A stretch of 38,893 nucleotides of DNA from the NCBI GenBank assembly GCA_014896485.1, contig JADBKH010000019.1, positions 1 to 38,893 on the forward strand, in the 5' to 3' direction. Made by a program: the position numbers and the translations under genes. The first letter of the stretch is position 1. Each line of letters begins with the position of its first letter. This document shows, one piece after another, positions 1 through 17,022 of this stretch. Source of the stretch: Bacillota bacterium (lineage in GTDB: Bacteria; Bacillota; Bacilli; Bu12). The notes beneath the pieces are model-generated. The model made no database searches. It saw nothing but the letters and a program-made list of their open reading frames with translations, and was not told the origin of the DNA.

Positions 1-2
1 TC

Positions 3-227
3 ACCAGTCCACACAGTGCGATTTTGTCTGCCTTGATTTTCAACGCCATCATCATCCCGCTTCTGATTCCTCTCGCCATGAGAGGAGTCAAGTATCGGCC
101 AATGAGCGCAACAGCGATGCTCATGCGGAACATCCTGATTTACGGTGTCGGTGGCGTGATCGCACCGTTTATTGGCATCAAGATGATCGATCTCATCATC
201 ACCGCACTTGGCCTGGCCAATATTTAA
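3..227 (+). CDS. kdpB: Potassium-transporting ATPase subunit B, 3' end only
   Basis: This is the C-terminal 74 residues of KdpB, the catalytic P-type ATPase subunit of the KdpFABC potassium pump in the cytoplasmic membrane. The reading frame is open from the first bases of the window, so the gene begins outside it. The translation starts [15 protein letters not shown] and continues with two hydrophobic segments ([11 protein letters not shown] and a C-terminal [15 protein letters not shown]), typical of the last membrane helices of KdpB. kdpC follows after 30 bases, the standard kdp order. The catalytic domains cannot be seen here. A second, broken kdpB piece lies on the other strand near 10.1-10.6 kb. 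Confidence 0.93.
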
Positions 228-257
228 CCCGTTCAATAACACGAGGAGGAAACCGTC

Positions 258-824
258 ATGGTTACTTTGTGGCGTTCGATACGGTTCACCATTGTTTCTG
301 CCATCCTGCTGGGGCTCATTTATCCGTTGGCTGTGACCGGAGTCGGCAATGTGCTCTTTCCATTTCAAGCCAAAGGAAGCATGGTTCAGTTCAACGGGCG
401 AATTGTCGGTTCGGAATTGATCGCGCAACCCGTCACGGATCCCGGGTTGTTTTGGCCGCGACCGTCGGCAGTCAATTACGCAGCAAACGGGTCCGGAGGA
501 TCAAACCTGGGGCCCACGAACCCAGAACTGGTGAAGGAAGTACGCGATAACGTGAAGTCCGCGGGCATTTCCGGTACAGTTCCAGCTGCATCCATTCCAC
601 CTGACATGGTTGAGACATCTGCATCCGGATTGGATCCAGACATTTCGGTGGAGAACGCGATGCTGCAGATTCCTAGAATCTCCAAGGCAACCGGCTTAAG
701 CGAGTCCACCTTAAAATCGCTGATCATTCAACATCAAAAAGGTCCGTTCTTGGGCCTGTGGGGTGCGCCGATGGTGAATGTCTTGGACCTGAACTTGGCC
801 TTGGAGAAACAGCTGGGCCGATAA
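258..824 (+). CDS. kdpC: Potassium-transporting ATPase subunit C
   Basis: KdpC is the single-span subunit of the Kdp pump that stabilises the KdpA-KdpB complex and raises affinity for ATP. The 188-residue length is normal. A hydrophobic N-terminal helix (about residues 7-28) is followed by an extracytoplasmic domain with the family signatures FWPRPSA, NGSGGSNLGPTNPEL, SGLDPDIS and a C-terminal LGLWGAPMVNVLDLN. The ATG is preceded by AGGAGG at 244-249 with good spacing, which fixes the start. It lies 30 bases after kdpB and is presumably cotranscribed with it. No lesions are seen. Confidence 0.96.
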   Translation: MVTLWRSIRFTIVSAILLGLIYPLAVTGVGNVLFPFQAKGSMVQFNGRIVGSELIAQPVTDPGLFWPRPSAVNYAANGSGGSNLGPTNPELVKEVRDNVKSAGISGTVPAASIPPDMVETSASGLDPDISVENAMLQIPRISKATGLSESTLKSLIIQHQKGPFLGLWGAPMVNVLDLNLALEKQLGR

Positions 825-841
825 GGTGCGAGGTCAAAAAA

Positions 842-1438
842 ATGTTTACTTCGTCGCAATTGTATTTCGGATCTGAGCCGTGTTGTCTCGACATTTTTAC
901 GCTCAGATATCGTTGGTTTGGCGCGGTCTGGAAATACGAAGGAAACCATCAAACTGTACTCGGTTTCTGGTTTGGAGATAGCCAACGAGATATTGTTAAA
1001 CAAGCACACGATGCAGGTTGGAGTTCTTTTATCGATTCAAATGATCCAGAGGCCATTCGCTCCGTATATGAACATATTCGAAATCGGCAAAGCGAACAGG
1101 ACTGGGGTCAGCGATCGCGTTTGGCACTGTACACGGCGTTCATAAAGCCGTGGAAAGATGTCCCTCCGGGATGGTACGTCATTCGCTCAGATAGACGCTT
1201 TCCATTTTACGTTGCGGCTATTCGCAAGACCAAGTTTTTCGTTTGGTTGGAACATGCGAGTGTTTGCGAAACCCAGCGGGACGTGGACATATTGCTGGAA
1301 CGAGTGAATCGAGAACATGGCGTTAAGTGGCAGGTGGTCAGCCGGAATATGATGATTTCGTGTTTAAGGAGCCAAGGAAAAAGTTCATCTGCCGGGGACG
1401 GGCAGTGTCGTCGTCGAACCAGGCGCAACGACGCTTGA
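842..1438 (+). CDS. Uncharacterised protein in the kdp operon
   Basis: An ORF of 198 codons between kdpC and the KdpD-like gene, same strand, 17 bases after kdpC. I do not recognise a family. The chosen ATG (MFTSSQLYFGSEP) avoids overlap with kdpC; an upstream in-frame ATG at 758 would overlap it by 67 bases. The protein is soluble-looking, rich in aromatic and basic residues (FGAVWKYEG, PPGWYVIRSD, KFFVWLEHAS), with a very basic tail. No signal peptide, membrane segment or nucleotide motif is visible. Its position suggests a Kdp accessory role, but that is inference. I recall that the Alicyclobacillus acidocaldarius kdp operon has extra genes (kdpZFABCN), but cannot say whether this is one of them. 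Confidence 0.6.
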   Translation: MFTSSQLYFGSEPCCLDIFTLRYRWFGAVWKYEGNHQTVLGFWFGDSQRDIVKQAHDAGWSSFIDSNDPEAIRSVYEHIRNRQSEQDWGQRSRLALYTAFIKPWKDVPPGWYVIRSDRRFPFYVAAIRKTKFFVWLEHASVCETQRDVDILLERVNREHGVKWQVVSRNMMISCLRSQGKSSSAGDGQCRRRTRRNDA

Positions 1439-1535
1439 AGAGAGAAATGGATGTAGGTCCATACCCTAACGGGGACAAACGCTGGCCTGTACCGTAGCTG
1501 ACTGAGTACAATCACGCAGACAGGGGGCTGCTTAT

Positions 1536-3809
1536 GTGGTTCAAAACCAGACCGAGGTTTTCAGAACAAAGCCCGGACAATTAAAAGTGTTCATTGGCGC
1601 CGCCCCTGGCGTGGGCAAGACATACACGATGCTGCGAGAGGCGGTGTCACTCAGGGAGCGGGGCATCGATGTCGTCATCGGATACGTGGAGGTGCACGGC
1701 CGCCCTGAGACGGCAGCACAAATCGACGGGCTGGAGGTTCTGCCGAGGAAACGCATTGTCTTTCAGAATCGCGTCTTCGAAGAGGTTGACATTGAAGCGA
1801 TTTGCAAGAGGGACCCGGATATCGTGGTGATCGACGAGCTGGCTCATACGAATGCACCGGGTTCCATGTTTCCCAAACGGTATATGGATGTGGAGTACCT
1901 GCTCGACCAAGGAATTTCGGTGTTGACTGCTGTCAATGTGCAACACATCGAGGGAATCCACCAAGAAGCCGAGGAGATAACCGGTGTACGGATTCGTGAA
2001 CTCATACCCGAGTCATTTATCAAACGAGCGGATGAAGTGGCCGTCATTGACGTGACTCCGGAAACGTTGCGCCAACGATTGCGTGATGGGGGCATCTATC
2101 CTCCAGATAAAGTGAATCAGGCACTACAAAATTTCTTCCGGAAGTCCAATTTGTCGGCCTTAAGGGAGCTGGCCTTGCGCGTCGTAGCCGAAGATGTCGA
2201 CGATCGTCTGCAGCGTTCCTATTCAAGGCGCAAAATTCCCGGTCCGGTGGGTGTCCGCGAGGTCATTATGGTATGCGTCAGCGACTACGCCCGTGCGATC
2301 AAACTTCTGCGGCGTGGACGCCAGATGGCAATGCGGATGAAAGCAGACCTGTATGCCCTCACTGTCGCCAATACAGCAGAGAATTTACTATCGGAGAAGC
2401 AACGTGAAAACCGGGAAAAACTCAAGGAATTAGCTGAAAAATACGGGGCCGACTGGGTACTTGAGCCTCTCAATGACCGGCAAATCGGGGCGGTCATTTT
2501 GGAGACTTCAGATCGCCTGAACGTCACGCAAATCGTGATCGGACAACCCGTACCCGAGCAGAAATGGAAATACGTGTGGAAGGACAATCCGGTGAGATAT
2601 TTATTGAGAAATCTACGGTATACCGATCTCCGAATCGTCGGTTGGAAAGACGTTCCGTATTCGCAGAGCAGGGGGTCCAGACGCCGGCGCACCGCTCGGG
2701 ATACGCAACGAAATCACGGCGAACATGCGCGCTCCCACGGCAAATTGACCATATACATTGGGGCAGCGCCTGGGGTCGGGAAGACCTACAAAATGTTGCA
2801 GGATGCCCATGATTGGAAGAACCGCGGCTGGGATGTCGTCATCGGACTGATCGAGACGCACGGGCGGCAAGAGACGGCTGCTCAGATCGGCGACCTGGAA
2901 GTGATTCCAAAGAAGCGAATCGAATACGAAGGACGTGTGTATGAAGAATTGGACGTCGACGCCATTATCCGGCGGAATCCATCGATTGTCCTGATCGACG
3001 AACTCGCACATACGAACGTCCCGGGGAGTCCCCGTGAAAAACGCTATCAGGATATCCTGTATCTGCTTGAGCACGGGATCAATGTTGTAACAGCGGTGAA
3101 CATCCAACACATGGAGAGTCTTCATGACAAAGTCGAGCACATTACGGGGGTCAAAGTACGCGAGCGGATTCCGGATTGGTTCGTGAAGCAGGCTCGTGAA
3201 ATTAGATTAATTGACGTCGTGCCGGAAACCCTGCAGCAGCGGCTCATTGATGGAAAAATTTATTCCACGGACAAAATTCAATGGGCTCTCGATCACTTCT
3301 TTGAAACCGCGAATCTGGCCGCCCTGCGGGAGTTGGCACTGCTCGAGGTGGCGGATGATGTGGATCAGCGGATGGCAGAAGACCGGTCGGCACACCGGAA
3401 CCCCCAAGAACGAGAGCGTATTCTCGTGTGTGTGAACTACCGGCCCCACTCTGAAAAACTGATTCGGCGCGGTTGGCGCATTGCGGATAGACTCAACGCG
3501 GAGCTGTATGTACTGGTCGTCCTGTTTGGAGATACACTTAGCGACCAGGAAAGCCGCGATTTAGAGCGAATTGAGAAGCTTTGCGAGCAATTTGGGGCCC
3601 GCTTGATCAAACGTCCGCCTCTCAAAAATCACGTCGGTTTGACAATCGTCAGAACCGCGGAGGAACTGCAGGTATCGCAATTGGTGGCAGGACAACCTGT
3701 TCCACCCGGTAACTTCATCGCCCGGCTGCTAACGAGAAATCCCATCGATTATGTGTTAAACCATGCCGAATTCGTTGATCTTCACATAGTGGCGGCACAG
3801 AGAAACTGA
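1536..3809 (+). CDS. Tandem-duplicated KdpD sensor/USP protein without kinase
   Basis: A 757-residue protein made of two copies of the cytoplasmic input half of KdpD. Copy 1 has Walker A GAAPGVGKT at residues 21-29, Walker B/DELAHTN at about 98-105 and a universal-stress-protein (USP) domain at about 240-370. Copy 2 has Walker A at 409-417, DELAHTN at about 488-494 and a second USP domain to the end. A basic linker (SRGSRRRRTARDTQRN, about 377-392) joins them. No membrane helices or histidine-kinase motifs follow, so it cannot phosphorylate KdpE itself. The GTG start has a G-rich ribosome site at about 1521-1528. In ordinary KdpD one such half senses potassium/ionic strength. A kinase-only KdpD lies at 10779, so this protein probably acts on it in trans (inference). 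Confidence 0.88.
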   Translation: MVQNQTEVFRTKPGQLKVFIGAAPGVGKTYTMLREAVSLRERGIDVVIGYVEVHGRPETAAQIDGLEVLPRKRIVFQNRVFEEVDIEAICKRDPDIVVIDELAHTNAPGSMFPKRYMDVEYLLDQGISVLTAVNVQHIEGIHQEAEEITGVRIRELIPESFIKRADEVAVIDVTPETLRQRLRDGGIYPPDKVNQALQNFFRKSNLSALRELALRVVAEDVDDRLQRSYSRRKIPGPVGVREVIMVCVSDYARAIKLLRRGRQMAMRMKADLYALTVANTAENLLSEKQRENREKLKELAEKYGADWVLEPLNDRQIGAVILETSDRLNVTQIVIGQPVPEQKWKYVWKDNPVRYLLRNLRYTDLRIVGWKDVPYSQSRGSRRRRTARDTQRNHGEHARSHGKLTIYIGAAPGVGKTYKMLQDAHDWKNRGWDVVIGLIETHGRQETAAQIGDLEVIPKKRIEYEGRVYEELDVDAIIRRNPSIVLIDELAHTNVPGSPREKRYQDILYLLEHGINVVTAVNIQHMESLHDKVEHITGVKVRERIPDWFVKQAREIRLIDVVPETLQQRLIDGKIYSTDKIQWALDHFFETANLAALRELALLEVADDVDQRMAEDRSAHRNPQERERILVCVNYRPHSEKLIRRGWRIADRLNAELYVLVVLFGDTLSDQESRDLERIEKLCEQFGARLIKRPPLKNHVGLTIVRTAEELQVSQLVAGQPVPPGNFIARLLTRNPIDYVLNHAEFVDLHIVAAQRN

Positions 3810-3910
3810 TGGAGTTGGTGAAATTCAGACCAAAAGTTGTAAAAAAGAAGGAATCACTTTAGATCTTGCGTACATTTGATTCGTATGTGTCGAGACCACC
3901 ATAAAACGCG

Positions 3911-3940
3911 GATAACCGGTCCCTCGACCAACCGGTTATC
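3911..3940. terminator. 10-bp inverted repeat after the KdpD-like gene
   Basis: GATAACCGGT, ten bases of spacer, then ACCGGTTATC, a perfect 10-bp stem 101 bases after the stop of the tandem KdpD gene. No T-run follows, so it is at best an atypical terminator. It could equally be a protein-binding site or part of a transposon end. Confidence 0.4.
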
Positions 3941-4107
3941 TCAGAATCCAACCTATTAACTCAGCCTGAGCGCCACATCGTCCGTCGGGATCCTGACAGT
4001 TAGCGGCTCACCGGGTCCCTTCGTAATCTAATTATATCTGTAGGTAAGATTTGTTGCAACGTACTCACAAAAGAGGTGTACTTAGCACGGTGCCACTGTC
4101 CATTCCG

Positions 4108-4128
4108 ACTCCGACCAGTTCTCGGAGT
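4108..4128. repeat. 7-bp inverted repeat
   Basis: ACTCCGA and TCGGAGT are separated by seven bases, forming a short perfect hairpin in the non-coding stretch before tnsA. Function unknown. It may be part of a decayed transposon end. Confidence 0.35.
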
Positions 4129-4428
4129 AGGTATCTCAAGGTTGGCACTCTTGAATCCTCCGTAGACCAAGTTCGATGTACTAAACCCTGCATGAGGTCT
4201 ACTAAATCGCGAATGGTTTGCCACAGTTTGACCTCATCATTTCAACCTCATCCCGCTCTTAGCAGCTTCCAAAAGCGTTTTACACGAAAAATACAATGCG
4301 TTTTGCTCTTTGTACAGGTATCCCCCCACCTGCTCTCCTTGTTGGCGGTACACTACGTAACGAAGGACATACAGATGCATACTGAAGCCAAATAATAGGA
4401 ACGTGAGAGACGAAGGACGGGGTTATCG

Positions 4429-5133
4429 ATGTACCAACCGGTGATGTCAAGCGTCCGAAGCCGGTACGGGAACAACCGCTGGATAGTCGATAGCACAAAG
4501 CTGGGCCGGACCGTTCAATTGAATAGTGACCTAGAATACTATTACTGGATTTTGATCGAGAGCGATCCACAGGTAGCGCGGTATTGCGAACAACCACTGC
4601 GTATCACGGTCCGGGAAGGGAATCGGGAGTATGGATCTGTGTTTGATTTCTGGGAAGAGTACCGAAATGGATTTCAACGGTTCGTGGAAGTCAAATATGC
4701 GGAGGAGATTGACCCAGAGTCCCCACGGAGGTTAGAGCGCTCCATCCGGCAAATCCGGCTCCAGCGTGAATGGTGCGCAGTGCATGGATTCAACTATGCT
4801 GTTGTGACGGACGCCGAGATCTTTCACAACGTGGTGTTGCTGCAGAACAAAAAGCGGATCGTCTCGTTGGCACGCGATATGGTCAGTGTCTCGGCAAGGA
4901 ACCGCGTGAGGAGTCAACTCAGTACCCAACCTATGTCCATTCGAGGACTTATGGACCGCATTCCTGGTCTGAGTGCATTGGAAGCAATGACCATCGTGGC
5001 TCAGCTTCTCTGCCGAGGTGAAGCGGAGGGGGATCTGGCACGCAGGGAGTTCGGATTGGACACAGATATTTGGTTGCCTTGTGCGAGTGGACCAAAGGAT
5101 TGCTACCCTGACGGGGGGCGTTTGACGCCATGA
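4429..5133 (+). CDS. tnsA: TnsA-like transposon endonuclease
   Basis: In Tn7-like transposition TnsA cuts the 5' strands at the transposon ends and works with TnsB, giving cut-and-paste movement. This 234-residue protein shows the nuclease pattern of the family: E36 in LNSDLEYYYW, D73 in GSVFDFW and E87-V-K89 in RFVEVKY, the E...D...ExK arrangement of restriction-enzyme-like nucleases. A small helical C-terminal part (about 165-234) would contact TnsC. The ATG has a purine-rich GAAGGACGGGG stretch just upstream. Its TGA overlaps the tnsB start (ATGA at 5130-5133), indicating translational coupling. No lesion is seen, unlike its partner tnsB. Confidence 0.85.
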   Translation: MYQPVMSSVRSRYGNNRWIVDSTKLGRTVQLNSDLEYYYWILIESDPQVARYCEQPLRITVREGNREYGSVFDFWEEYRNGFQRFVEVKYAEEIDPESPRRLERSIRQIRLQREWCAVHGFNYAVVTDAEIFHNVVLLQNKKRIVSLARDMVSVSARNRVRSQLSTQPMSIRGLMDRIPGLSALEAMTIVAQLLCRGEAEGDLARREFGLDTDIWLPCASGPKDCYPDGGRLTP

Positions 5134-7176
5134 CCCGGCAACGAATCATTGAGGATGTATCCCTGTCCGTGAGCCAACTCGATCCGTCCACCTGGCCGCC
5201 TGTCCTGCGTGAAAACATTCCTGAAAAGTGGCGGGTGCGGTTCGACCAACGTAAGCAAGCGGTGGAGATGTATCTGGCCGGAACCCCGATGAAGGACATT
5301 TGCAGCAGAACGGGCCTCTTGCGACGAGGTGGTTCGGCTCGTCAAGCGTTGTCTGCAAACCGATGCGCAGGGGACGGTCCTCGGCTACCGGGCATTGATA
5401 CCGTACGCGCGGGTGAACCGGTACACCCGAAAGTCACCGGCTCGCAATGCGGGACGCGGACCTGGATTGTTTCAGGATCTCCTAGACAGATATCCCGCGC
5501 TCCGGGACGAAATTCTCGACCTATATCTGGACCGCAAGAAGCGGATACCGAAGGAACGGGGAATCAAAATCAAGTACATCCATCAACGGTTCATCCAACG
5601 TTGCCGCGAACTTGGGATCACTGCCGACATGTACCCATTTACAACGATGGATGCGGGGCTCCGTTCGTTGAGACGTTACTGCAAGCAACTGGAATATCAG
5701 TATTTTCTAGAGGCGAGCGGACGGTACGGTCGGCACGCCCAGCAAGTGGCCAAGCTTGTCACTCGTTCGCCAAACGTTCCCATTGTGCGCCCGTTCGAGC
5801 GGGTGCAGTTCGACGGACATCGCTTGGACGTAGCTATCACCGTGCGCTTTGTCACTCCGGAGGGGGATTATATCACGCGCCCGCTCAACCGGATTTGGCT
5901 GTTGACTGTGTGCGACGTGGCGACGCGGGCAATTCTGGGTTAAACGCTTAGTCTATACCAGGAGTACACGAGCGCAGACGTGTTGAGATGCTTTCGCCGT
6001 GCCGTCGTACCGCATGAGAAGATGACGTTCACCATCCCAGGTCTTCGCTATCCTACGTTCGAGGTTGCGTCTGGTCAGATAGTAGAGGGCGGATTCCCTT
6101 CTGATTTCTTTCCCGAGACCCACTGGGCCGTGTTTGACGAGATCTGCTATGACAACAGGATCTGCTATGACAACGGGCGCGCCAACCTGAGCGAGGTGGT
6201 GATCGACCGACTGCAAACGGTCTTGAAGGCGCATGTCGGACCGGGGCCTGTGGATCTGCCACAACGCCGTGGGCTCATCGAGCGAATTTTCGGGGTTCTT
6301 GAGGACAACGGGTTCCATCGTTTGGTCAGCACCACGGGATCTAGTCCGAAAGATCCCCGAAGACGAAATCCTGAGCAGTCGGCCAGCCGGTACGGAGTCT
6401 ATTTCGAGCACATTCAGGAATTGGTGGAGGTTCTGATTGCGGAGTACAACACGACGCCTCACGGGGGCGTGAACCATCTCTCGCCCCTTGAGGCGATGCG
6501 CCAACGCATTCAGGAGCGAGGCATGCTCCCTAGACAGTTATCCGGAAAAAGACAGGAGGCGGTATTCTTGACGGCAACCGTTGTTCGTCATGTGCGGGGT
6601 AGCGCAAAGTCGGGCAGGCGCCCGCACATCAATTACATGGGTGTGGTCTACCGGAGTCCGCAGTTGGACGAGAGCGCGTATTTGGTGGGAAAACCACTGA
6701 CCCTGCTCGTCGACTTGGACGATTTGCGCGTAATCAAGGCATTTTTGCCGGACGGTTCGGAATTCGGGAATTTGGTTGCAGAAGGCATCTGGGGCATCCG
6801 GCCACACTCGGTCAAGGTGCGCAAGGCGATCATGCAACTTGCTAGTCGGCAGGTCCTGCGGCTGGACGGTGATCCCATCGAGGCATATCACCGCTACCTA
6901 CGGGAGATGGCGATGTCCGACAAGCGAGCTCGTAACCGTTTGTTGCAAATGGACGGCCACCAGTCCCGTCCAGAAAGTCAAGACGTGACCAAAGATAAGT
7001 ACTCTCATAACCATTCCGATTTGGTGGACTATACGTTCGATGACGACAACGAAGTCCTCGTTGGCGGAACCGGTGACCCCGCCACGACCGACGTGCATTC
7101 CAAACGACGCGGGAGGAAACAGCGGGCAGAGGCCCCGCGTCCGCAACGCCGATTTACGCAAACAATCGACTACTGA
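5130..7176 (+). pseudogene. tnsB: TnsB-like DDE transposase, broken by frameshift and stop
   Basis: TnsB binds the transposon ends and joins the 3' ends to the target. The coding capacity is complete but interrupted. The N-terminal frame (MTRQRIIEDVSL...) leaves frame at about 5322-5326; the continuing frame starts DEVVRLVKRC, fitting loss of two bases. A TAA at 5941-5943 then cuts ...RAILG from TLSLYQEY in the same frame. Catalytic motifs are recognisable: an aspartate region in FDGHRLD, CYDNGRANL, and E in GLIERIF about 36 residues later (DD-35-E pattern). The bases 6141-6158 are tandemly repeated at 6159-6176 (17 of 18 identical), adding six residues just before the second catalytic aspartate. 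The C-terminal part resembles the Mu-type beta-barrel and a charged TnsC-binding tail. It cannot make a full transposase as read. Confidence 0.85.
6141..6176 (+). repeat. 18-bp tandem duplication in tnsB active site
   Basis: Two adjacent 18-bp units, each starting GATCTGCTATGACAAC, differ at one base. The result is an in-frame EICYDN-RICYDN duplication beside the DNG catalytic motif of the transposase. It looks like a slippage duplication. Confidence 0.9.
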
Positions 7177-7245
7177 TGTCGTGGTGTTCTGGGATTCGGG
7201 AGATGGAACTTCACAATAACCTGTCGGGGAAGGGGAGAAATACCA

Positions 7246-8250
7246 ATGCCAGACAGCACTCGGCCCGTGGTTGCACCGGGTTGCCATCCCATCGAAACCG
7301 GACGGTACCGCGTCCCGACACGGGCAATCAACGATCTTGGCGAGGTTCTGTTGGATTGGATTCACAAGCGGTCACCTGGCGGGATTATCACAGGGCGACC
7401 TCGCCTTGGCAAGACGAGAACCGTCGAGTACCTGACGATGCAGTTGCCTCGCGTGCTCGGCGATGCCGCGATCCCGATGTACAAGATCTGTTGCAACAAG
7501 TACCGTGTCCCCACGGAGAATACGTTTTATGGCGACATCCTGATGGACCTGGGGCATGCGGAGATCAAAGGAACAATCGCGGTACGCCGGGATCGCATCT
7601 GCAAGTACCTGATTGCGGCAGCATGCGCGAGCAATCAACGGCGCGTCATCCTGATACTGGACGACGCGCACCGGTTAACCCGGCTCTTGTACGAATGTCT
7701 AACGGACATACACAATCAGCTTGACCGGCACGAGGTCAACCTGACTGTGTTCCTGGTCGGGCAGCCAGAACTGATTCACCAGAAGCAGTCCTTGCTTGCA
7801 ATGAAGGCACACCAGATTGTCGGGCGGTTCATGGTCCATGAGTATCAGTTCCACGGGATCCGCAGTGTGGAAGATGTCAGGGAGTGTTTGCAGGCGTACG
7901 ATACCGGCTCGGAGTACCCGCACGGCAGCGGGTGGTCCTGCACGCGATACTATTTTCCGACACAATTCGACAGAGGATTCCGGCTGGAGCAGTACGCGGA
8001 AGACCTGTGGCGCACGTTTCAACAGCTTCACTCCGAAGACGGGCTCGGGCCGTCTGTGGAAATCCCGATGCAATATTTTGCGTTGACGGTGGAGTACCTT
8101 CTCACCGAATTTGGGATCGATGGAAAGGATGTCGACCGGCGGACCAAGTCCAATCTGAGAGAGGCGGTCACGAAGTCCGGATATGTGATTGCAGAGAAAT
8201 ATGCCAGGGACAATTCGTTTGATGACCTTGTCGAGTCGGGGGGAAGGTGA
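7246..8250 (+). CDS. tnsC: TnsC-like AAA+ transposition regulator
   Basis: TnsC is the ATP-dependent matchmaker that loads on target DNA, receives the TniQ/TnsD signal and activates TnsA-TnsB. The 334-residue protein has a Walker A motif GRPRLGKT at residues 50-57 and Walker B in VILILDDAHRL (about 133-143), followed by a sensor-like VFLVGQPEL. The length fits the smaller TnsC proteins. The ATG is preceded by GGGGAAGGGGAG at a good distance, 69 bases after tnsB. The gene looks intact. It ends four bases before the tniQ start, consistent with one operon. Confidence 0.85.
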   Translation: MPDSTRPVVAPGCHPIETGRYRVPTRAINDLGEVLLDWIHKRSPGGIITGRPRLGKTRTVEYLTMQLPRVLGDAAIPMYKICCNKYRVPTENTFYGDILMDLGHAEIKGTIAVRRDRICKYLIAAACASNQRRVILILDDAHRLTRLLYECLTDIHNQLDRHEVNLTVFLVGQPELIHQKQSLLAMKAHQIVGRFMVHEYQFHGIRSVEDVRECLQAYDTGSEYPHGSGWSCTRYYFPTQFDRGFRLEQYAEDLWRTFQQLHSEDGLGPSVEIPMQYFALTVEYLLTEFGIDGKDVDRRTKSNLREAVTKSGYVIAEKYARDNSFDDLVESGGR

Positions 8251-8254
8251 GCGG

Positions 8255-9766
8255 GTGGGAATCCATCACATTCTTACGGATGATGACGTGCGTTTCCGTG
8301 CTCCCAATCCTCACTACGCTTGGAGACCGGAGTGGGGAGGACCGCTGTTGTCACCATGGGCCTACCTTCAACGGTTTTGCTACGCCAATTGCCTCACAGA
8401 GAAGCAGATGTATGAGGCACTGGGCCGAGACGGAGAGAGGGCGCCTTATAAGTCGGAAGTAAATAGACGGGACTTGATCGGTCTGGCTGGCTTTGTCGAT
8501 GACAAAGTCCGAAGCGTGTTTGGCGTGTCCTTCGCCGAGAACAACGAACGGTTCGCCCACACCGTGCTGGGTATGGTCTGGAATGACACGGCCACAAAAC
8601 TCCGGCAATTTCTTCGCCCGGAACTGTCATATTGTCCGGAGTGCGTGCAATTGGGGTTCCATAGCTATCTCCACCAGTTGCGCGGGCTCAGCGTGTGCCC
8701 GTTTCATGGCGTTCCACTCCAGCACGCTTGCCCCAGTTGCAGGCAAACCTTCTCGTATGCCGTGGGATACAAGGAGTTTCGTCAGCCGTTCACGTGCCGG
8801 TGTGGGTATTTCTTTCTCAGGGGGAAGGAAACAGGTCTTTGGGACGTACAGAATTGGGCAGCCCACCAGGAGTTCTCGATCCAACATCCGGCACTATTGC
8901 GACTACTGTCGTGGAATCCGAGCGAGGGTTACATAATGACCTATCCCGTAGACGGGACGTTCGATTATCCGTTGGAATACTTGGCGGACATGACTACCCT
9001 AGCTCTCTCCGATCGGACGCCTACGACCGGACGTTTGTCACGGTTTGGATCGCCGGTTTCGGACTCATGGAATGGATGCGAAAGCTGTACCGACGCGCAG
9101 ACGGACGATTGCATTGTAAAGGTTTTGGAAGGTGACAGCACTCTTAGCGGGATCGCCAAGTCGGTTGCGAAATGTCTACTGCGGTACGTGCGCCGCAGTA
9201 TGGTTCGCTCGGGTCACAGGAGAATGTGCCTGGTCGAGGGGTTTCGCATCGAGCCCTCTCATTCCCGTTGGGTGTACTGTGTGCTGGGTGAAGCCTACGA
9301 ACATTTCAAAGTCAAAGACGAATTTCGCCGGATACCCCAATACTGGATCGTTGAGAACGGCGTCGAGAATTTGATGGCATTCGTGAAGCACGTGGAGCCG
9401 ATTGGCATCAGCAGTAAGGCGGGAGGGAGGGAATTGTTTCGTTTCTGCGTGTCGCTGTGCAAGTCCGGCGTTGACATCCAAAGCTCCATGTTTCGTTGGA
9501 TTTTTGCGCATCTGTACGGGTATGAGGCAGCGAAACGGTGGACCGGCTGGGTCAAAGCCGAAGTTGCGGAGCGGCAACGCGCGACGCATTATACGAGGCA
9601 TTACAGGAAATGGGTGCAATCAGGACCGTATCCCGTACGTGCATTCGTGCGAGTCTTTCCGCAAGACCCTAGTTCTTGTGTGATTTGGTTCCCCGAGTAT
9701 CCGTGTGTCTCCTCGACTTTGAACACCGAGAATCCGCATTACCCTTGGATGTCTCAGAACTCGTGA
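8255..9766 (+). CDS. tniQ: TniQ/TnsD-family target-site selector
   Basis: TniQ-family proteins choose the target site for Tn7-like elements and recruit TnsC. The 503-residue product has the typical zinc-finger layout: CPEC at 127-130, H140, CPFH at 148-151, CPSC at 159-162, then CRC at 181-183. The N-terminal part (PLLSPWAYLQRFCYANCL) matches the TniQ domain start, and the long variable C-terminal half would be the DNA-recognition part, as in TnsD. I chose GTG 8255 because GGGGGGAAGG lies just upstream, overlapping the tnsC end; a longer frame from 8189 would run inside tnsC. No lesion is visible. Its sequence preference is unknown, but the right end of the element lies in a kdpB gene. Confidence 0.82.
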   Translation: MGIHHILTDDDVRFRAPNPHYAWRPEWGGPLLSPWAYLQRFCYANCLTEKQMYEALGRDGERAPYKSEVNRRDLIGLAGFVDDKVRSVFGVSFAENNERFAHTVLGMVWNDTATKLRQFLRPELSYCPECVQLGFHSYLHQLRGLSVCPFHGVPLQHACPSCRQTFSYAVGYKEFRQPFTCRCGYFFLRGKETGLWDVQNWAAHQEFSIQHPALLRLLSWNPSEGYIMTYPVDGTFDYPLEYLADMTTLALSDRTPTTGRLSRFGSPVSDSWNGCESCTDAQTDDCIVKVLEGDSTLSGIAKSVAKCLLRYVRRSMVRSGHRRMCLVEGFRIEPSHSRWVYCVLGEAYEHFKVKDEFRRIPQYWIVENGVENLMAFVKHVEPIGISSKAGGRELFRFCVSLCKSGVDIQSSMFRWIFAHLYGYEAAKRWTGWVKAEVAERQRATHYTRHYRKWVQSGPYPVRAFVRVFPQDPSSCVIWFPEYPCVSSTLNTENPHYPWMSQNS

Positions 9767-10090
9767 CAGTGTGGTCATGTGATTGCGCTTGCGAACGCAC
9801 TATCGGTCGTCCACATGATGAGGAGCTAAATCATTCATTCAACATACAGGAAAATCTTAACTATTACATGTACATGCTTGCATTCTCTTGCATGCTCTAC
9901 AACGTACGCACTGTTCTGTCCGAAGGTCCAAAACTTTTTCCAGTTGTCCGCGACAAAACCGATACTATGTTGTCCTTTTTCCGCGAATATGCCGATACTC
10001 TGTTGTCCAGGAATCGCGGCGTTCGACCCGGAAAACGAGAAAGCCGATATTCTTTTGTCCTGAAAGCCGATACTTTTTTGTCCTTGGACA
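9767..10090. repeat. Right end of Tn7-like element with transposase-binding repeats
   Basis: Non-coding stretch after tniQ. Four clear copies of an 18-bp site (consensus GCCGATAYTNTKTTGTCC) lie at 9959-9975, 9991-10008, 10043-10060 and 10066-10083. Weaker matches occur near 9908-9920 and 9941-9950. All have the same orientation, and spacing is tightest at the outer edge, as in Tn7 right ends where TnsB sites overlap or abut. The element ends TTGGACA at 10090; read from outside inward it starts TGTCCAAGGACA. Confidence 0.75.
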
Positions 10091-10092
10091 TG

Positions 10093-10574
10093 ATTGTACC
10101 CGTCTTATCAAGAATCAACGTATTTACATCCCCGGCAGCCTCGACCGCTTTACCGGACTTGGCTATTACGTTGAATCGGATAACGCGATCCATCCCGGCA
10201 ATTCCGATAGCACTTAATAAAGCACCAATTGTCGTTGGGATAAGACAAACCAACAACGCGATAAGGGTCGCGATATCAATGTTTCCACCGACATAGCGAG
10301 CAATTGGATCAAGCGTGTCAACGACAATTAAGAAAGTTAGTGTGAGCCCAGCCAAAAGAACAGATAATGCCAATTCGTTAGGTGTCTTTTGTCGGCTAAC
10401 TCCTTCCACCAAACCGATCATCTTGTCGAGAAACGATTCTCCGGGGTCCGCCGTAACACGAACCACCAGTTCATCTGACAGAAGCTTTGTTCCACCAGTG
10501 ACGGAACTGAATTCACCACCAGCTCCCCGGATTACAGGTGCCGATTCACCGGTAATCGCGGATTCGTCTACACT
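10093..10574 (-). pseudogene. kdpB: Internal fragment of a second KdpB
   Basis: On the minus strand the translation runs from [14 protein letters not shown] through [38 protein letters not shown] and [16 protein letters not shown] to [11 protein letters not shown], all diagnostic of KdpB. It stops at the phosphorylation motif DKTGTI, where the transposon right end begins. The open frame continues into the transposon repeats but is no longer KdpB. The N-terminal third is also missing: similarity fades upstream of SVDES at about 10574. Only about 160 of roughly 680 residues remain. It is antisense to the kdpD-kdpE genes beside it, so rearrangement must have occurred. It is more AT-rich than the housekeeping block, similar to kdpDE. 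Confidence 0.88.
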
Positions 10575-10778
10575 ATACGTTTGAGGCTGGCTCTCGCACT
10601 GAACCGCCTAAAAGGACTTTGACTCACAGATATTACAGAGATGATTGTAGGTCGAATTCGTGTCAAAATGCCGTTGAGATATGCCATCTGGGTGTAAAAA
10701 GATCGTAAAAATGGAGGACACAGAGGCTTCGGCAGAGCTATAAATCAGGTATTCCTCTAATCGAATGGAGTTAGTAGC

Positions 10779-12404
10779 ATGAAGCAAACAACATCTTTTA
10801 GACCAAAATGGCGTGTACTGACTTCCCACGTCATTCCTTTGGTCCCCGAAACAATTATGGATGGGGCTGACATCGAACCAAACCGCTTTGTACCATATTT
10901 GGTCGCATCGATTATGGTTTTCGGGTTGACTGTTATCTTCTGGAACTCCCAATATGCGTTCACGCCGGTCAACATTGCTCTTTTATACCTTTTGCCGGTA
11001 CTCGTCACAGCGGTCCGTTGGGGACTGTGGCCATCTGTTTATGCCGCCGGTATAGGAGTGATTTCCTTTGATTTTTTCTTCGTTCCACCAATATTTGCCT
11101 TTACAGTTAGAGATATGAGGTATTTGATTTCTTTCGCTGTGTATTTGGCAGTTGCCATATTTACCGCTAGCTTGGCAGTTCAATTACGACAACGCTTCGA
11201 GGAAGCAAAAGCTCGTGAAGCCATTACGTCCGCCATGTATACTTTAAGCACTCAGGTGGCCGCAGCGAGGGACTTAGATGCCGTCTTGCACGAAATTGTC
11301 CATCACGCCTCCAGAACTTTTGGCTTGTCTACCGCAATTGTGCTGCCGGACACAGCGGGGCAACTGACTGTAAGGGTACAGCATGGAATTAAGTCAACCA
11401 ATGAACCAGATATTATCGAACCCAGAATATTACGTTGGGTGTACGAGCATGGAAAAATGGCCGGTTACGGAACAAATACTCACAGGGATAACTCGTTGCT
11501 ATACGTACCTTTGAAAACCGAATCAAAGATCCATGGAGTAATGTGCATCGCTGTCAAACAACAATCGGGAATTGGGAATGCAAACGACCTCATTCGAGTA
11601 GTCCAGGCTTTGGCTGGCCTCGCGTCAGTATTTATCGCGCGTATTCATTTCGAAGAAGAAGCAAAACTTGCCCATTTAGCGGCAGAGTCAGAACGATTGC
11701 GTACAGCCCTATTGGATTCCATTTCACATGAATTACGTACGCCACTAGCCACAATCATTGGCTCCGTTACAGGAATGATAGAGGGCGCAGGCGTTCTTTC
11801 TGCCACAGACCAACATGAATTGCTGCTCACCGTTCGGGAAGGCGCAATGCGAATGAACCGCCTCGTCACAAACCTCCTAGGAATGGTTCGTCTCGAAAGC
11901 GGCATGCTCCGCTTGAACAAGAAATGGTGTGACATCTCAGATATCGTCGGAGTTGCACTAAGTCAGGTACAGGATTCCTTACAAAATCGAGCGGTGGAGC
12001 TAAACTTGCAAGGTAACTTACCCGCAATTGCGGTGGACGATGTACTGATCGAACAGGTACTGGTTAATCTGCTTAGCAACGCCGTCAAATATTCACCCGA
12101 TGGCAGCCCAATTCGTCTTGATGTCTTAGAATACGATGGAGTTCTCACTATGCGGATTCGAGACTGGGGCATAGGCATCGCTCCGGATGAGGTGGACAAG
12201 ATCTTTGACAAATTCTACCGCACAAATGCTGGAAGAAGCATTCCTGGTACTGGTCTTGGATTAGCTATTTGTAAAGGTATAATTCAGGCACACGGTGGCG
12301 AAATTTTCGCCAGGGGTGCAGAGGATGTAGGCACTATTGTTACGATTCGACTTCCTGTTGGTGACATGCCGGAACTTCCACACGATTCGATGAGTTTAGA
12401 GTAA
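10779..12404 (+). CDS. kdpD: KdpD-type histidine kinase lacking the N-terminal sensor half
   Basis: A 541-residue sensor kinase equal to the C-terminal half of KdpD: four hydrophobic segments (about residues 41-57, 65-80, 85-105, 115-133; the DUF4118 membrane domain), a GAF-like region (about 160-285), then the kinase. The phospho-accepting histidine is H317 in SISHELRTPL. The N box is LLSNAVKYSPDG, G1 is DWGIGIAPDEVDKIFDKFYR and G2 is GTGLGLAICKG. Normal KdpD is about 900 residues; the KdpD/USP half is absent, and the 32-residue N-terminus does not contain it. GGAG at 10767-10770 supports the ATG. It would phosphorylate KdpE, encoded 14 bases downstream. The split from 1536-3809 suggests signalling in trans (inference). 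Confidence 0.92.
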   Translation: MKQTTSFRPKWRVLTSHVIPLVPETIMDGADIEPNRFVPYLVASIMVFGLTVIFWNSQYAFTPVNIALLYLLPVLVTAVRWGLWPSVYAAGIGVISFDFFFVPPIFAFTVRDMRYLISFAVYLAVAIFTASLAVQLRQRFEEAKAREAITSAMYTLSTQVAAARDLDAVLHEIVHHASRTFGLSTAIVLPDTAGQLTVRVQHGIKSTNEPDIIEPRILRWVYEHGKMAGYGTNTHRDNSLLYVPLKTESKIHGVMCIAVKQQSGIGNANDLIRVVQALAGLASVFIARIHFEEEAKLAHLAAESERLRTALLDSISHELRTPLATIIGSVTGMIEGAGVLSATDQHELLLTVREGAMRMNRLVTNLLGMVRLESGMLRLNKKWCDISDIVGVALSQVQDSLQNRAVELNLQGNLPAIAVDDVLIEQVLVNLLSNAVKYSPDGSPIRLDVLEYDGVLTMRIRDWGIGIAPDEVDKIFDKFYRTNAGRSIPGTGLGLAICKGIIQAHGGEIFARGAEDVGTIVTIRLPVGDMPELPHDSMSLE

Positions 12405-12418
12405 GGGGCAACTTTATC

Positions 12419-13111
12419 ATGGGTGCAAAAATATTAATTGTAGATGATGAGCCACAAATTCGGAAATTGCTGCGCGTAACCTTGCAGGCCCACGGGTTCA
12501 CGACAATAGAAGCGGCAACGGGACAAGATGGTATCATTCAGGCAGGCATGATAAGACCCGATTTGATCATTCTGGACTTGGGACTACCCGATATGGATGG
12601 CACGAAAGCATTATCTCAAATACGTGAATGGTCTGTCGTGCCCATCATTGTAGTAACCGTACGTGATGACGAAGAAGGAAAAGTGTATGCCCTTGACCAC
12701 GGTGCGGATGATTACGTCACCAAACCATTCGGAATGAGTGAATTGATGGCTCGAATTCGTACGGCTCTTCGCCACGTCGCAAACCAACCAGACGAACCAG
12801 TACTGAAAATAGGAAAATTAACCATTGACTTAGCTCGTAGGATTGTGGAGCGAGATGGCCAACCTGTTAGGCTCACTCCAACGGAGTATGACCTTCTAAA
12901 GACAATGGCGACAAACGCAGGTCGGGTCATGACACATCGGCAATTGTTTCAACAAGTTTGGAAGGGACAAAATTACGAAACCGCGGACCACTATTTACGC
13001 GTATACATCGGACATCTGAGAAAGAAAATTGAAGATAACCCCGCACAGCCAAACCTCATCATCACAGAACCTGGGGTTGGGTATAGACTTGTCATTCCGA
13101 GTGAATCTTAA
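12419..13111 (+). CDS. kdpE: KdpE response regulator (OmpR family)
   Basis: A 230-residue cytoplasmic two-component regulator that activates kdp transcription on potassium limitation. The receiver domain has acidic residues D9-D10, phospho-acceptor D53 in LIILDLGLPDMDG and the conserved lysine in TKPFGMSEL. The winged-helix domain (about 130-228) has LTPTEYDLLKTMATNAGRVMTHRQLFQQVWK and the C-terminal GVGYRL. It starts 14 bases after kdpD with a GTAAGGGGC ribosome site, so the pair is an operon. It appears intact. Confidence 0.95.
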   Translation: MGAKILIVDDEPQIRKLLRVTLQAHGFTTIEAATGQDGIIQAGMIRPDLIILDLGLPDMDGTKALSQIREWSVVPIIVVTVRDDEEGKVYALDHGADDYVTKPFGMSELMARIRTALRHVANQPDEPVLKIGKLTIDLARRIVERDGQPVRLTPTEYDLLKTMATNAGRVMTHRQLFQQVWKGQNYETADHYLRVYIGHLRKKIEDNPAQPNLIITEPGVGYRLVIPSES

Positions 13112-13182
13112 ACTGATGTGACTCAGGAACATAGAAGCACGCCGGTTAACGACGGTTTTCATTTGCTTTTAGAAGGGCCCGC

Positions 13183-14127: not shown

Positions 14128-14949
14128 TCATCCGGCCGCCCCTCGTTGCCGCTCTTGGTCTGCCAGCACCCGCTGGACGTGTGCGTCTTCTACGACGTCA
14201 CTGTCTTTCGCTGCTGCGTCGTACAGGGCCTGTAGGCAGATTTGGTTCACCACCCGTGGAATCCCTCGACTGGCCCCGTAAATCAGGTGCAAAGTGCTGT
14301 CCGTAAACGCCGGCGCTTGCTGCCCGGTCAATCGAATCTGGTGGCGGATGTATTCAGCCGTCTCTTCTCTGCTCATTCCATGTAAGTGGTACACCATTTC
14401 AATCCGTTGCGAAATCGCCTCATACTTCTTGAGTCGCAACTTCCGTCGCAACTCTGGCTGTCCAACCAATATCAACGGGAACAGGGACATGGCGTCCATC
14501 CTCTGGTTACGGACGAACCTGAGTTCCTGCAGCATCTCATCGGAAATATCCTGTGCCTCATCGATCACCACAGCCCACCGTCTTTCGCCGGCAAGTCCAC
14601 CGGCCTGGACCCGTTCGTTCCAAAGCTTCCTCGCACAGCTCACGGAGAAGGGGTTCGCCTCTCCTAGATATGAGAGAAGCTCTCCGTAAAACTCCTTTGG
14701 GCGCAGACCTGGTACACAAATGTAGACGGGGAGTCACTTCATCTGATCGAGTCCACCAATCAGTCGGCGAATGAGTGTCGACTTCCCGCTGCCTACTTCA
14801 CCGGTTAGCAGCCCCAGTGCGTTTTGCTCAAGCACCCATTCCATCCGGGCCAAGGCTTCCCGGTGTCCAGCGGTCTCGTAACATTCGTCTCTCTCCACAT
14901 CCCGTCGAAACGGCAGCTTTTCAAATCCCCATTTCTCCTGCGGCGTCAC
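14128..14949 (-). pseudogene. Transposition ATPase (TniB/ExeA/TnsC type) with internal stop
   Basis: A 273-codon gene encoding the AAA ATPase that normally activates the adjacent transposase. Walker A is GEVGSGKST in the first segment (14949-14737) and Walker B is RWAVVIDEAQDI in the second, followed by FPLILVGQPELRRKL, a sensor-like motif. Both parts are in one frame, separated by TGA at 14734-14736 (...GGLDQMK then LPVYICVPG...), so a single nonsense change breaks it. The ATG overlaps the transposase stop by four bases (ATGA), indicating an operon. It could work only by readthrough or restart. Confidence 0.82.
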
Positions 14950-16331
14950 TTGGATTCACCACGCTTTGTCTCCGAGAATCGCAGCGGGGATTCCTCGACT
15001 GCAGCCTGCTTGCGTCGGTTTTTCACCGCTTGGAAGAAGGAGACATGCTCTGTGGTTACTTTGTCGCTCTTCACCGTCGAGGCAACCCTGCGGTCATAAC
15101 GGCGGGTCAGATCCACGGGCTTCGCATTGGACCATCGTTTGTCCTCAAACCAGACTTGGATCACCGAAAGGTCAAACGGGTCGTAACGCAGCGTCACCTT
15201 CTGTCTAGCCAGGTCAGCATCCACCTCGTAGGTGTTGCCCATCAGGGAAACACAAGTGGCTTTGTCTGCTGTACGTTCTTCCTCCCACAGAAAGATCTCT
15301 GTCAGTTCCGCCTCAGAAACCCGTTTGGGCACCCGGTTGCTGCTTGCAGCTCTTTCTTTTGTCGGCGTTCCAGTGCTGCCATGCTTGCGCAGGTGGTAAT
15401 ACCCGTCCACCCAGGCCCAGAACGCTTCATTCAACTCGACAAGCCTCCGGATATGTCCCGCTTCCACTTGCTCATACGCTTCGGGAATGAAGCTTGTATC
15501 GAGGAATCGGAATATCCGTTCAATTTTTCCACGGCCAGCAGGACGGTAGGCTTTGCTATGCGACAGATGAATCCCCAGCCTTCCGCAGATGCGTTTCAAA
15601 TGCTGGGACGAGAAAACCGCGCCGTTGTCCACGTACAGCCGTTCGGGGATGCCATACCGCAAGATCGCCTTTTTCAGGCTGTCTTCCAAGCGTGGCAGCT
15701 GTTCGTCCCAGTAGAACTGCCCGTGGACAATGAGCCTCGAGTAATCATCAGGGATGGCGAACAGAATCGTCTTTTTCTTACGTTCCGGATGGCTTGGATC
15801 AGGCAAGTACAGCGCATGCTTAAAATCCGCCTGCCACAGAACATGCACGTCTTCCGCCTCAAAGCGCCGGTATCCCCGGTCGTTGGAGCGAAGCAACTCT
15901 TTACGACTAACCCCTAAGCGACGCAAATGGCGGGCTAATGTACTCTGTGCCACTGTGCCTGGCTCCACAACACCGCTTGCCTCGAGCAGAAGGACAATCT
16001 GCTCTACGCTGCGCTCAGGACGTTCCTTGCGTAACGCCACCGCCTTCTGAATCACTTCGTCTGGCAACTGGTGGCGCCCTTTGTCGCTACGGGTCTTGGG
16101 CATGAGGGCTTCGTATCCGCCCTTGCGGTACGCCTCCAGCCACCGTTCCAGGGTTCGTACACTGAGTGTCGTTCTGGTGGTGCCGGGAATCACATAGGAT
16201 TGTTGTACCATCCGCTCAAAATAGGCACGCAGTTCCCCTGGAGACAACGGCGTTTGTCGACTCACAATGGGTGCAATCGTTCCGTATCGAAACGCCGCAA
16301 TCTCCTTCGCCAACTTCTTTCGGTCCACCAT
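14946..16331 (-). CDS. DDE transposase (Mu/TnsB/Tn552 type)
   Basis: A 461-residue transposase that would bind the terminal repeats and catalyse strand transfer. Helix-turn-helix segments occupy about residues 30-140 (TLSVRTLERWLEAYRKGG; STLARHLRRLGVSRKEL). The catalytic triad is D169 (LWQADFKHA), D235 (LYVDNGAVFS) and E271 (GRGKIERIF), a DD-35-E spacing. A Mu-type C-terminal beta-barrel follows (about 350-420: CVSLMGNTYEVDADLARQKVTLRYDPFD). ATG 16331 is chosen because GGAGAGAGGAG lies immediately upstream; the frame is open further back but has no ribosome site there. No lesion is seen. Its ATPase partner next door is broken. Confidence 0.88.
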   Translation of the reverse strand: MVDRKKLAKEIAAFRYGTIAPIVSRQTPLSPGELRAYFERMVQQSYVIPGTTRTTLSVRTLERWLEAYRKGGYEALMPKTRSDKGRHQLPDEVIQKAVALRKERPERSVEQIVLLLEASGVVEPGTVAQSTLARHLRRLGVSRKELLRSNDRGYRRFEAEDVHVLWQADFKHALYLPDPSHPERKKKTILFAIPDDYSRLIVHGQFYWDEQLPRLEDSLKKAILRYGIPERLYVDNGAVFSSQHLKRICGRLGIHLSHSKAYRPAGRGKIERIFRFLDTSFIPEAYEQVEAGHIRRLVELNEAFWAWVDGYYHLRKHGSTGTPTKERAASSNRVPKRVSEAELTEIFLWEEERTADKATCVSLMGNTYEVDADLARQKVTLRYDPFDLSVIQVWFEDKRWSNAKPVDLTRRYDRRVASTVKSDKVTTEHVSFFQAVKNRRKQAAVEESPLRFSETKRGESK

Positions 16332-16416
16332 ACCATCTCCTCTCTCCAGAATCGGTACAAGCCTATTCTCGGATGCGCGTGCCAACCTGTTCCATAGACA
16401 TACGCTGTGGGATCGG

Positions 16417-17022
16417 CTATGCCGTGCTGGTCGACTGTGACTGGCGGAGCCGGTACAGGCCGTGAAAGAGGCCAACATTCACTTTGCTTGGCGAAAGCTC
16501 CATCCAAATCTGCTGCCAGTACCGCAAACGCTGCGTTGGGCGGTTACGTCCCCTTGGCATACGGATGGTGGGATGGAGTGAGATCACATACTGCCAAAAC
16601 TGGCTGTCAAGTTTGTCCATATCCTCCTGCCAGCGCTTCATCCATCGCCATACAGTGCGGGCACAGAGCGGACCCACCGGAGCCGGTAGACGTTTGGCCG
16701 CTTCTTCCAAAGATTGTTCATCCGCCTTCGTGCACACAACCTCTTGGACATCCCAAGTGAAGCGCTCATAACGACCGACGAAGCTCGGCAACACGCTGCA
16801 GGTGTGTTTGCAGTCCGAATTTGCACAGCGGAACCGAAACACCCGAATGCGCCAAAGCTTCTCCTCTGCCCACACGTTCCGAACGTAGCAGCCATGACTG
16901 TGCAGGGTGGTACACCCGCAAAATTCGCATGACGGTGGACGCAACAAATCCAGGTTAGGAGCTTCACAAAATCGCAAATAGGACTCGACGTTCGGGAAGG
17001 GGATCGAATATGATAGAGACAT
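16417..17022 (-). CDS. Zinc-ribbon/HTH protein of the transposon (DUF6431-like)
   Basis: A 201-residue protein, first gene inside the right terminal repeat. It has two Cys pairs forming a zinc ribbon (CEFCGC near residue 32-36 and RCANSDCKHTC near 66-75), the segment SVLPSFVGRYERF, and a C-terminal helix-turn-helix (CARTVWRWMKRWQ). I believe it resembles the DUF6431 family often seen beside transposases, from memory. It may bind transposon ends or help choose targets, by analogy with zinc-finger TniQ proteins (inference). The ATG at 17022 follows AT-rich DNA with no strong ribosome site. The frame extends upstream into the terminal repeat, which is not coding. Confidence 0.68.
   Translation of the reverse strand: MSLSYSIPFPNVESYLRFCEAPNLDLLRPPSCEFCGCTTLHSHGCYVRNVWAEEKLWRIRVFRFRCANSDCKHTCSVLPSFVGRYERFTWDVQEVVCTKADEQSLEEAAKRLPAPVGPLCARTVWRWMKRWQEDMDKLDSQFWQYVISLHPTIRMPRGRNRPTQRLRYWQQIWMELSPSKVNVGLFHGLYRLRQSQSTSTA

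What the first reader, a model, noticed from the sequence alone, without database searches (positions are those of the whole stretch)
1536..3809. KdpD input module duplicated in tandem and detached from its kinase
One 757-residue protein contains two full KdpD/USP units, each with an intact GAAPGVGKT Walker A and DELAHTN, and no kinase. The kinase half of KdpD is a separate gene at 10779 lacking exactly this part. Truncated KdpD proteins without kinases are known (for example in cyanobacteria), but a tandem pair opposite a kinase-only KdpD would be a two-protein sensor in which two nucleotide-binding and two USP domains could form an intramolecular dimer.
Basis: partly seen in the sequence, partly recalled or inferred. 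Interest (0 to 1): 0.72.

Follow-up and report, generated by a model that had tools for sequence, protein, structure and literature searches.

The report
Tandem detached KdpD serine-kinase module
This gene encodes two fused copies of the front part of the potassium-sensor protein KdpD without its histidine kinase; it belongs to a protein kind already known from Alicyclobacillus and other Bacilli, where it most likely acts as a separate off-switch kinase for the Kdp potassium pump and not as a lost antenna of the kinase found nearby.

Summary
Window 1536-3809 encodes KdpD-Usp-KdpD-Usp (757 aa) with no histidine kinase. The gene at 10779 is KdpD residues ~404-888 (DUF4118-GAF-HisKA-HATPase), followed by kdpE.

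Splitting of kdpD in Alicyclobacillus was published in 2006. The detached KdpD domain is now known as an atypical serine kinase that phosphorylates KdpB to shut the pump off (PMC11018627). Both units here keep the ATP-site and catalytic residues.

Tandem proteins are common in Bacilli and are not tied to a headless KdpD. Of 57 tandem-bearing genomes, 28 have a headless KdpD, 5 a full-length KdpD, and 24 neither at a convincing level.

In this genome the two halves come from different donors. Window 1-3848 is 94.5% identical to one Alicyclobacillaceae genome; 10091-13119 is 92-94% identical to A. sacchari. A Tn7-like element lies between. KdpA is absent from the assembly and KdpB is in fragments.

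By-product: the tandem form probably arose twice. In the Paenibacillus/Bacillus form the first unit has usually lost the catalytic Walker B glutamate; in the Alicyclobacillus form both units are intact.

The parts
1536..3809 (+). kdpN-type gene: KdpD-Usp-KdpD-Usp, 757 aa, no histidine kinase
   Evidence: NF038185 KdpD_non_kinase, 914 bits, two stretches
1575..2198 (+). unit 1 KdpD (P-loop, atypical serine kinase) domain: GAAPGVGKT, DE, R190 equivalent kept, Trp39 position is Tyr
2256..2645 (+). unit 1 Usp domain (approximate)
   Evidence: alignment to E. coli KdpD
2736..3362 (+). unit 2 KdpD (P-loop, atypical serine kinase) domain, same residues kept
   Evidence: (2r8r, E 4.9e-66)
3414..3791 (+). 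unit 2 Usp domain (approximate)
3..203 (+). C-terminal end of kdpB (residues ~609-675), cut by the contig end
258..824 (+). kdpC
   Evidence: PF02669
1..3848 (+). block 1: 94.5% DNA identity to genome G217 (Alicyclobacillaceae), holds kdpB end, kdpC, an ORF and kdpN
3849..10090 (+). Tn7-like element or its remains (TnsA 4429-5133; TnsB-like frames 5130-7176, broken, assigned by position only; TnsC/TniB-like 7246-8250; TniQ 8189-9766)
9959..10083 (+). four copies of CCGATACTNTTTTGTCC-like repeats at the element's right end
10091..10607 (-). inverted kdpB fragment (residues ~149-310, holds the DESAITGES target motif), cut just after DKTGT
10091..13119 (+). block 2: 92-94% DNA identity to Alicyclobacillus sacchari, with kdpB start and kdpA (2.48 kb) deleted
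10779..12404 (+). headless KdpD (KdpH type): DUF4118-GAF-HisKA-HATPase, matches E. coli KdpD 404-888
12419..13111 (+). kdpE response regulator

Best explanation
The 757-aa protein is a KdpN-type regulator: two fused copies of the KdpD-Usp module that act, in the organisms where it is native, as a stand-alone atypical serine kinase. It would be made with the pump (gene after kdpC) and, when potassium is plentiful, phosphorylate the serine of the TGES loop of KdpB and so stop the pump. Transcription is handled by the separate headless KdpD plus KdpE, or by neither. The tandem arose by duplication to two neighbouring genes and later fusion. In this genome the gene arrived with a kdp fragment from one Alicyclobacillaceae donor, while headless kdpD and kdpE came with a different fragment from an A. 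sacchari-like donor; the pump is incomplete in the assembly. Shown: architecture, catalytic residues, operon position, phylogeny, two-source mosaic. Inferred: serine-kinase activity of this protein, its target and its signal.
For: E. coli KdpD 1-230 alone phosphorylates KdpB Ser162, and this needs Walker A, D109/E110 and W39/R190; a short KdpD-Usp from Deinococcus geothermalis does the same (PMC11018627). Both window units keep GVGKT, DE and R, with Y for W39, as do all 36 units of 18 Alicyclobacillus-type tandems. The gene lies at or near the position after kdpC in almost every tandem locus read. The target motif DESAITGES is in 45 of 46 KdpB frames, the exception being a truncated one. Tandem genomes often lack any KdpD kinase, so the module must have a job of its own. 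Unfused neighbouring pairs group with unit 1 and with unit 2. NCBIfam names the family KdpD-like non-kinase (NF038185).
Against: I found no measured activity for any tandem protein. In E. coli the N-terminal domain also interacts with the C-terminal half and alters the kinase/phosphatase balance (PMC2714519), so a role in trans on the headless kinase is not excluded. TGES is a general P-type ATPase motif, so its conservation is weak support. KdpA is missing from this assembly, so the protein may have no substrate here; but the contig ends inside kdpB and the rest could lie in an assembly gap. The two-donor mosaic could also be an assembly chimera across a shared transposon.
Confidence: 0.72

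Rival explanations
1. One reading: the tandem protein is the input half of a two-protein sensor; two nucleotide-binding and two Usp domains form an intramolecular dimer that docks on the dimeric headless KdpD and controls its kinase/phosphatase switch.
For: Same kdp region in Alicyclobacillaceae and in genus f4/g27, where kdpN-kdpH-kdpE are consecutive. In E. coli the N-terminal domain interacts with the C-terminal part and is needed to repress at high K+ (PMC2714519). One AlphaFold model aligns with tandem UspE-type structures over ~550 columns, TM 0.59-0.64 by target.
Against: 24 of 57 tandem genomes have no convincing KdpD kinase. Five have a full-length KdpD as well. Headless KdpD also occurs with a single-copy module (L085). 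In the window the two halves come from different donors. Model confidence is poor for domain placement (pTM 0.53; 0.29 in the second model).
Confidence: 0.15
2. Both roles at once: the tandem protein is the serine kinase for KdpB and also a partner of the headless kinase in species that have one, as full-length KdpD does in one chain.
For: Full-length E. coli KdpD does both jobs (PMC11018627). Gene order kdpABC-N-H-E in genus f4/g27.
Against: No direct evidence for contact; the tandem persists where no headless kinase exists.
Confidence: 0.3
3. In this genome the whole locus is a non-functional remnant: two imported kdp fragments joined around a transposon, with no working pump, so the tandem protein does nothing here (compatible with the best explanation, which is about the native setting).
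For: No KdpA in a 96% complete assembly; KdpB only as tail and inverted fragment; deletion of kdpA and the start of kdpB next to headless kdpD; GC of both blocks (0.52, 0.47) below the 0.57 of the resident backbone.
Against: kdpC, kdpN, kdpH and kdpE frames are all open; 92-95% identity to the donors suggests recent arrival or continuing selection; the contig ends inside kdpB, so kdpFAB of block 1 may be unassembled.
Confidence: 0.45

Closest known systems
Split kdpD of Alicyclobacillus acidocaldarius (Schleussinger, Schmid, Bakker 2006, BBA 1759:437; title seen in the reference lists of PMC11018627 and PMC3035248)
   Same: kdpD split into a module gene with the pump genes and a separate kinase gene, in two divergent kdp operons; the same layout was read here in several Alicyclobacillaceae
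   Different: The full paper is not held, so I could not check whether it already describes the module as a tandem. In the window the two parts are fragments from different donors, in one orientation, separated by a Tn7-like element.
KdpD atypical serine kinase / short KdpD-Usp proteins (PMC11018627; NCBIfam NF038185 KdpD_non_kinase)
   Same: Domain content, catalytic residues, operon position
   Different: Two fused units in place of one; the main text of that paper does not mention tandem units
E. coli KdpD (full length)
   Same: ~41% identity of each unit to residues 23-352; headless gene matches residues 404-888
   Different: Domains on two chains; module doubled; Tyr for Trp39
S. aureus KdpD Usp domain that binds c-di-AMP (7JI4, PMC8214093)
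   Same: Fold (TM 0.83 by target)
   Different: Binding motifs (A/G/C)XSXSX2N(Y/F) and SXS-X20-FTAXY absent in both Usp domains

Membership tests
KdpD_non_kinase (NF038185) / KdpN-type short KdpD | KdpD domain plus Usp domain without histidine kinase, over the NCBIfam cut-off | tested here: met
   914 bits against cut-off 550, two stretches; no HisKA/HATPase
KdpD_non_kinase (NF038185) / KdpN-type short KdpD | single KdpD-Usp unit (model length 373); a property of the model, not a published requirement | tested here: not met
   two units in one 757-aa frame; it is a tandem form
KdpD atypical serine kinase | Walker A, Walker B Asp-Glu, adenine-contact aromatic/Arg pair | tested here: met
   both units GAAPGVGKT, DE, R; Tyr for Trp39
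KdpD atypical serine kinase | phosphorylates KdpB Ser162 | not testable with these tools
   target motif TGES present in the kdpB fragment and in relatives; activity needs an assay
Split KdpD of Alicyclobacillus | module gene after kdpC, kinase-only gene with kdpE in the divergent operon | tested here: inconclusive
   true for relatives; in the window the genes share one strand and come from different donors
c-di-AMP-binding KdpD | SXS-X20-FTAXY or (A/G/C)XSXSX2N(Y/F) motif in Usp | tested here: not met
   genome has two diadenylate cyclases, so binding by another mode is not excluded
Full-length KdpD histidine kinase | KdpD-Usp-TM-GAF-HisKA-HATPase in one chain | tested here: not met
   none in the genome

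The most novel reading that the evidence does not exclude
Covalently doubled KdpD serine kinases evolved twice in Bacilli. In the form of the Paenibacillus/Bacillus-like families the first unit is a pseudokinase (Walker B Glu lost in 19 of 22 sequences) that regulates the active second unit, while the Alicyclobacillus form keeps two working sites; fusion restores the pairing that the detached module lost with its histidine-kinase dimer.
Probability: 0.35. Interest if true: 0.55.

Novelty: new member of a known kind. Interest (0 to 1): 0.36.

Why it matters
The finding itself is mostly explained: split kdpD and the serine-kinase role of the detached part are published. The survey adds that the detached module is very often doubled in Bacilli, probably by two separate duplications, and that one lineage has turned one copy into a likely pseudokinase. 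This gives a simple system for asking why an atypical serine kinase benefits from being paired. It also warns that two halves of a split sensor found near each other in one contig need not be partners.

Tried and rejected
Searches of the genome's own family and order returned only the window's genome, so the class was sampled. Two region requests failed for length and were repeated. 'KdpN' in the paper library gave only unrelated hits. A c-di-AMP riboswitch as the regulator of this locus: riboswitches exist in the genome but none on this contig; the kdp promoter region is not in the contig, so this stays untested. An AlphaFold model from the tandem-only alignment was too poor to use (pLDDT 51, pTM 0.29). 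An AU test of one shared duplication (unit 1 with unit 1, unit 2 with unit 2 across both forms) gave p 0.042 and 0.042, so independent origin is favoured but not firm; unit 1 plus unit 2 of the other form as one clade was not rejected (p 0.55). No left-end partner of the transposon repeats was found at 3.8-4.4 kb.

Full report
What is there. The frame 1536-3809 encodes 757 residues with the order KdpD-Usp-KdpD-Usp and nothing else. The two units are 49% identical to each other and each is about 41% identical to E. coli KdpD residues 23-352. Both keep GAAPGVGKT, the Walker B pair DE and the arginine equivalent to R190; the tryptophan-39 position is tyrosine. The closest solved structure is the P. 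syringae KdpD N-terminal domain 2r8r. The gene at 10779 covers E. coli KdpD 404-888 and has DUF4118, GAF, HisKA and HATPase_c; kdpE follows. No full-length KdpD exists in the assembly.

How common it is. In 300 genomes of the class, frames of about 750-840 aa with KdpD domains are frequent in several families. I tested 57 genomes with such a frame or an adjacent pair of units for DUF4118, the membrane domain of the headless kinase. Twenty-eight have a headless KdpD, mostly 510-575 aa (in G271 it runs off the contig end, in G215 it is in two frames), 5 have a full-length KdpD, 4 have a weak match in another protein, and 20 have none. Two units were seen directly in the tandem loci that were read; for the other genomes of the 57 the tandem is inferred from frame length and match count. 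Gene maps show these settings: Alicyclobacillaceae with kdpE-kdpH divergent from kdpABC-N; genus f4/g27 (7-Mb genomes, probably Paenibacillus, not named by the tool) with kdpABC-N-H-E in a row; genus f4/g4 with a full-length KdpD and KdpE plus kdpABC-N; and many genomes of other families with kdpABC-N alone. Named relatives with the tandem at 72-76% identity are Alicyclobacillus tolerans, A. sacchari, A. mengziensis and A. ferrooxydans. A Terriglobia locus (L085) has a single-copy module followed by a headless kinase and kdpE.

What the module does. Silberberg et al. 2024 (PMC11018627) showed that the KdpD domain is an atypical serine kinase: residues 1-230 alone phosphorylate KdpB Ser162, dependent on Walker A, D109, E110 and W39/R190, and a short Deinococcus KdpD-Usp protein does the same under c-di-AMP. 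They note that A. acidocaldarius keeps the serine-kinase chain downstream of the pump while the histidine kinase is separate, citing the 2006 split-kdpD paper. The window protein fits this kind, and NCBIfam names it KdpD-like non-kinase (NF038185). The main text of the 2024 paper does not mention tandem units. The c-di-AMP motifs of S. aureus KdpD are absent from both Usp domains, though the genome has two diadenylate cyclases.

Origin of the tandem. In a tree of 87 units, unit 1 and unit 2 of the Alicyclobacillus form are sister clades (95*), and four pairs of unfused neighbouring genes fall beside them, one gene with unit 1 and one with unit 2. So duplication came first and fusion later. The other form (families f3, f4, f22, f27, f33 and the second copies in f48) has its own unit-1 and unit-2 clades. 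A shared duplication is disfavoured at p 0.042. In the Alicyclobacillus form all 36 units keep DE; in the other form all 22 second units keep DE but only 3 of 22 first units do (DG 12, DD 4, DH 2, DQ 1). Since E110A abolishes activity in E. coli, those first units are likely pseudokinases. This pattern was not part of the finding and I found no paper on it in the few searches made.

The window as a mosaic. Bases 1-3848 are 94.5% identical to genome G217, and bases 10091-13119 are 92-94% identical to A. sacchari (G146, L061/L078), with a 2.48 kb deletion that removed kdpA and the start of kdpB. The two blocks differ in GC (0.52 and 0.47) from each other and from the backbone (0.57). The rest of the contig is resident: its PriA is at most 48% identical to those of 19 other genomes of the class, Alicyclobacillaceae included. 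Between the blocks lies a Tn7-like element (TnsA, TnsC/TniB-like, TniQ), whose right end with four repeats abuts kdpB just after the DKTGT codons. KdpA is not found and KdpB is present only as a tail at the contig start and as the inverted fragment. Either the genome took up two kdp fragments, or the assembly joined two strains across a shared element; reads would be needed to tell.

Structure. A model from 17 sequences has pLDDT 78 and pTM 0.53. Foldseek finds 2r8r (TM 0.94 by target), the c-di-AMP-bound KdpD Usp 7ji4 (0.83) and tandem-type UspE structures aligned over about 550 columns (0.59-0.64), which would place the two Usp domains side by side. A second model from tandem sequences only was too poor to use. 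The intramolecular dimer is possible but not shown.

Verdict. The two-protein sensor reading is not the best one: this is a tandem form of the known detached KdpD serine kinase, common in Bacilli, and in this genome it and the headless kinase appear to be imports from different sources.

Noticed in passing
G000 contig C12, L035:7445-9595: A second tandem KdpD-like protein (716 aa) in the same genome, decayed in both units (no Walker A in unit 1, Walker B changed), directly followed by a PAS-HisKA_3 histidine kinase (L035:9609-11144).
   Followed up: partly
window 3849-10090: Tn7-like element (TnsA, TnsC/TniB-like, TniQ) with a broken gene at the TnsB position and four right-end repeats, single copy in the genome, abutting a kdpB fragment.
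   Followed up: partly
window 758-1438: ORF between kdpC and kdpN without a Pfam match; relatives in G217 (L052), A. tolerans (L077:703-1227) and, away from kdpN, L042:2104-2685.
   Followed up: partly
L081:2908-7520: MAG with a fused tandem followed by two further single KdpD-Usp genes, four units in a row, beside headless kdpD and kdpE.
   Followed up: partly
L049:11372-13048 and L082:8179-9891: Tandem kdpN divergent from or beside a different histidine kinase (HisKA, no DUF4118 found in L049) with a KdpE-like regulator and kdpABC: a possible replacement of the headless KdpD.
   Followed up: partly
window 18403-20201: Two adjacent tyrosine recombinases of the phage integrase family.
   Followed up: no
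window 14128-16478: Minus-strand Mu-type transposase with a neighbouring AAA ATPase frame, a second transposon of the same broad kind.
   Followed up: no
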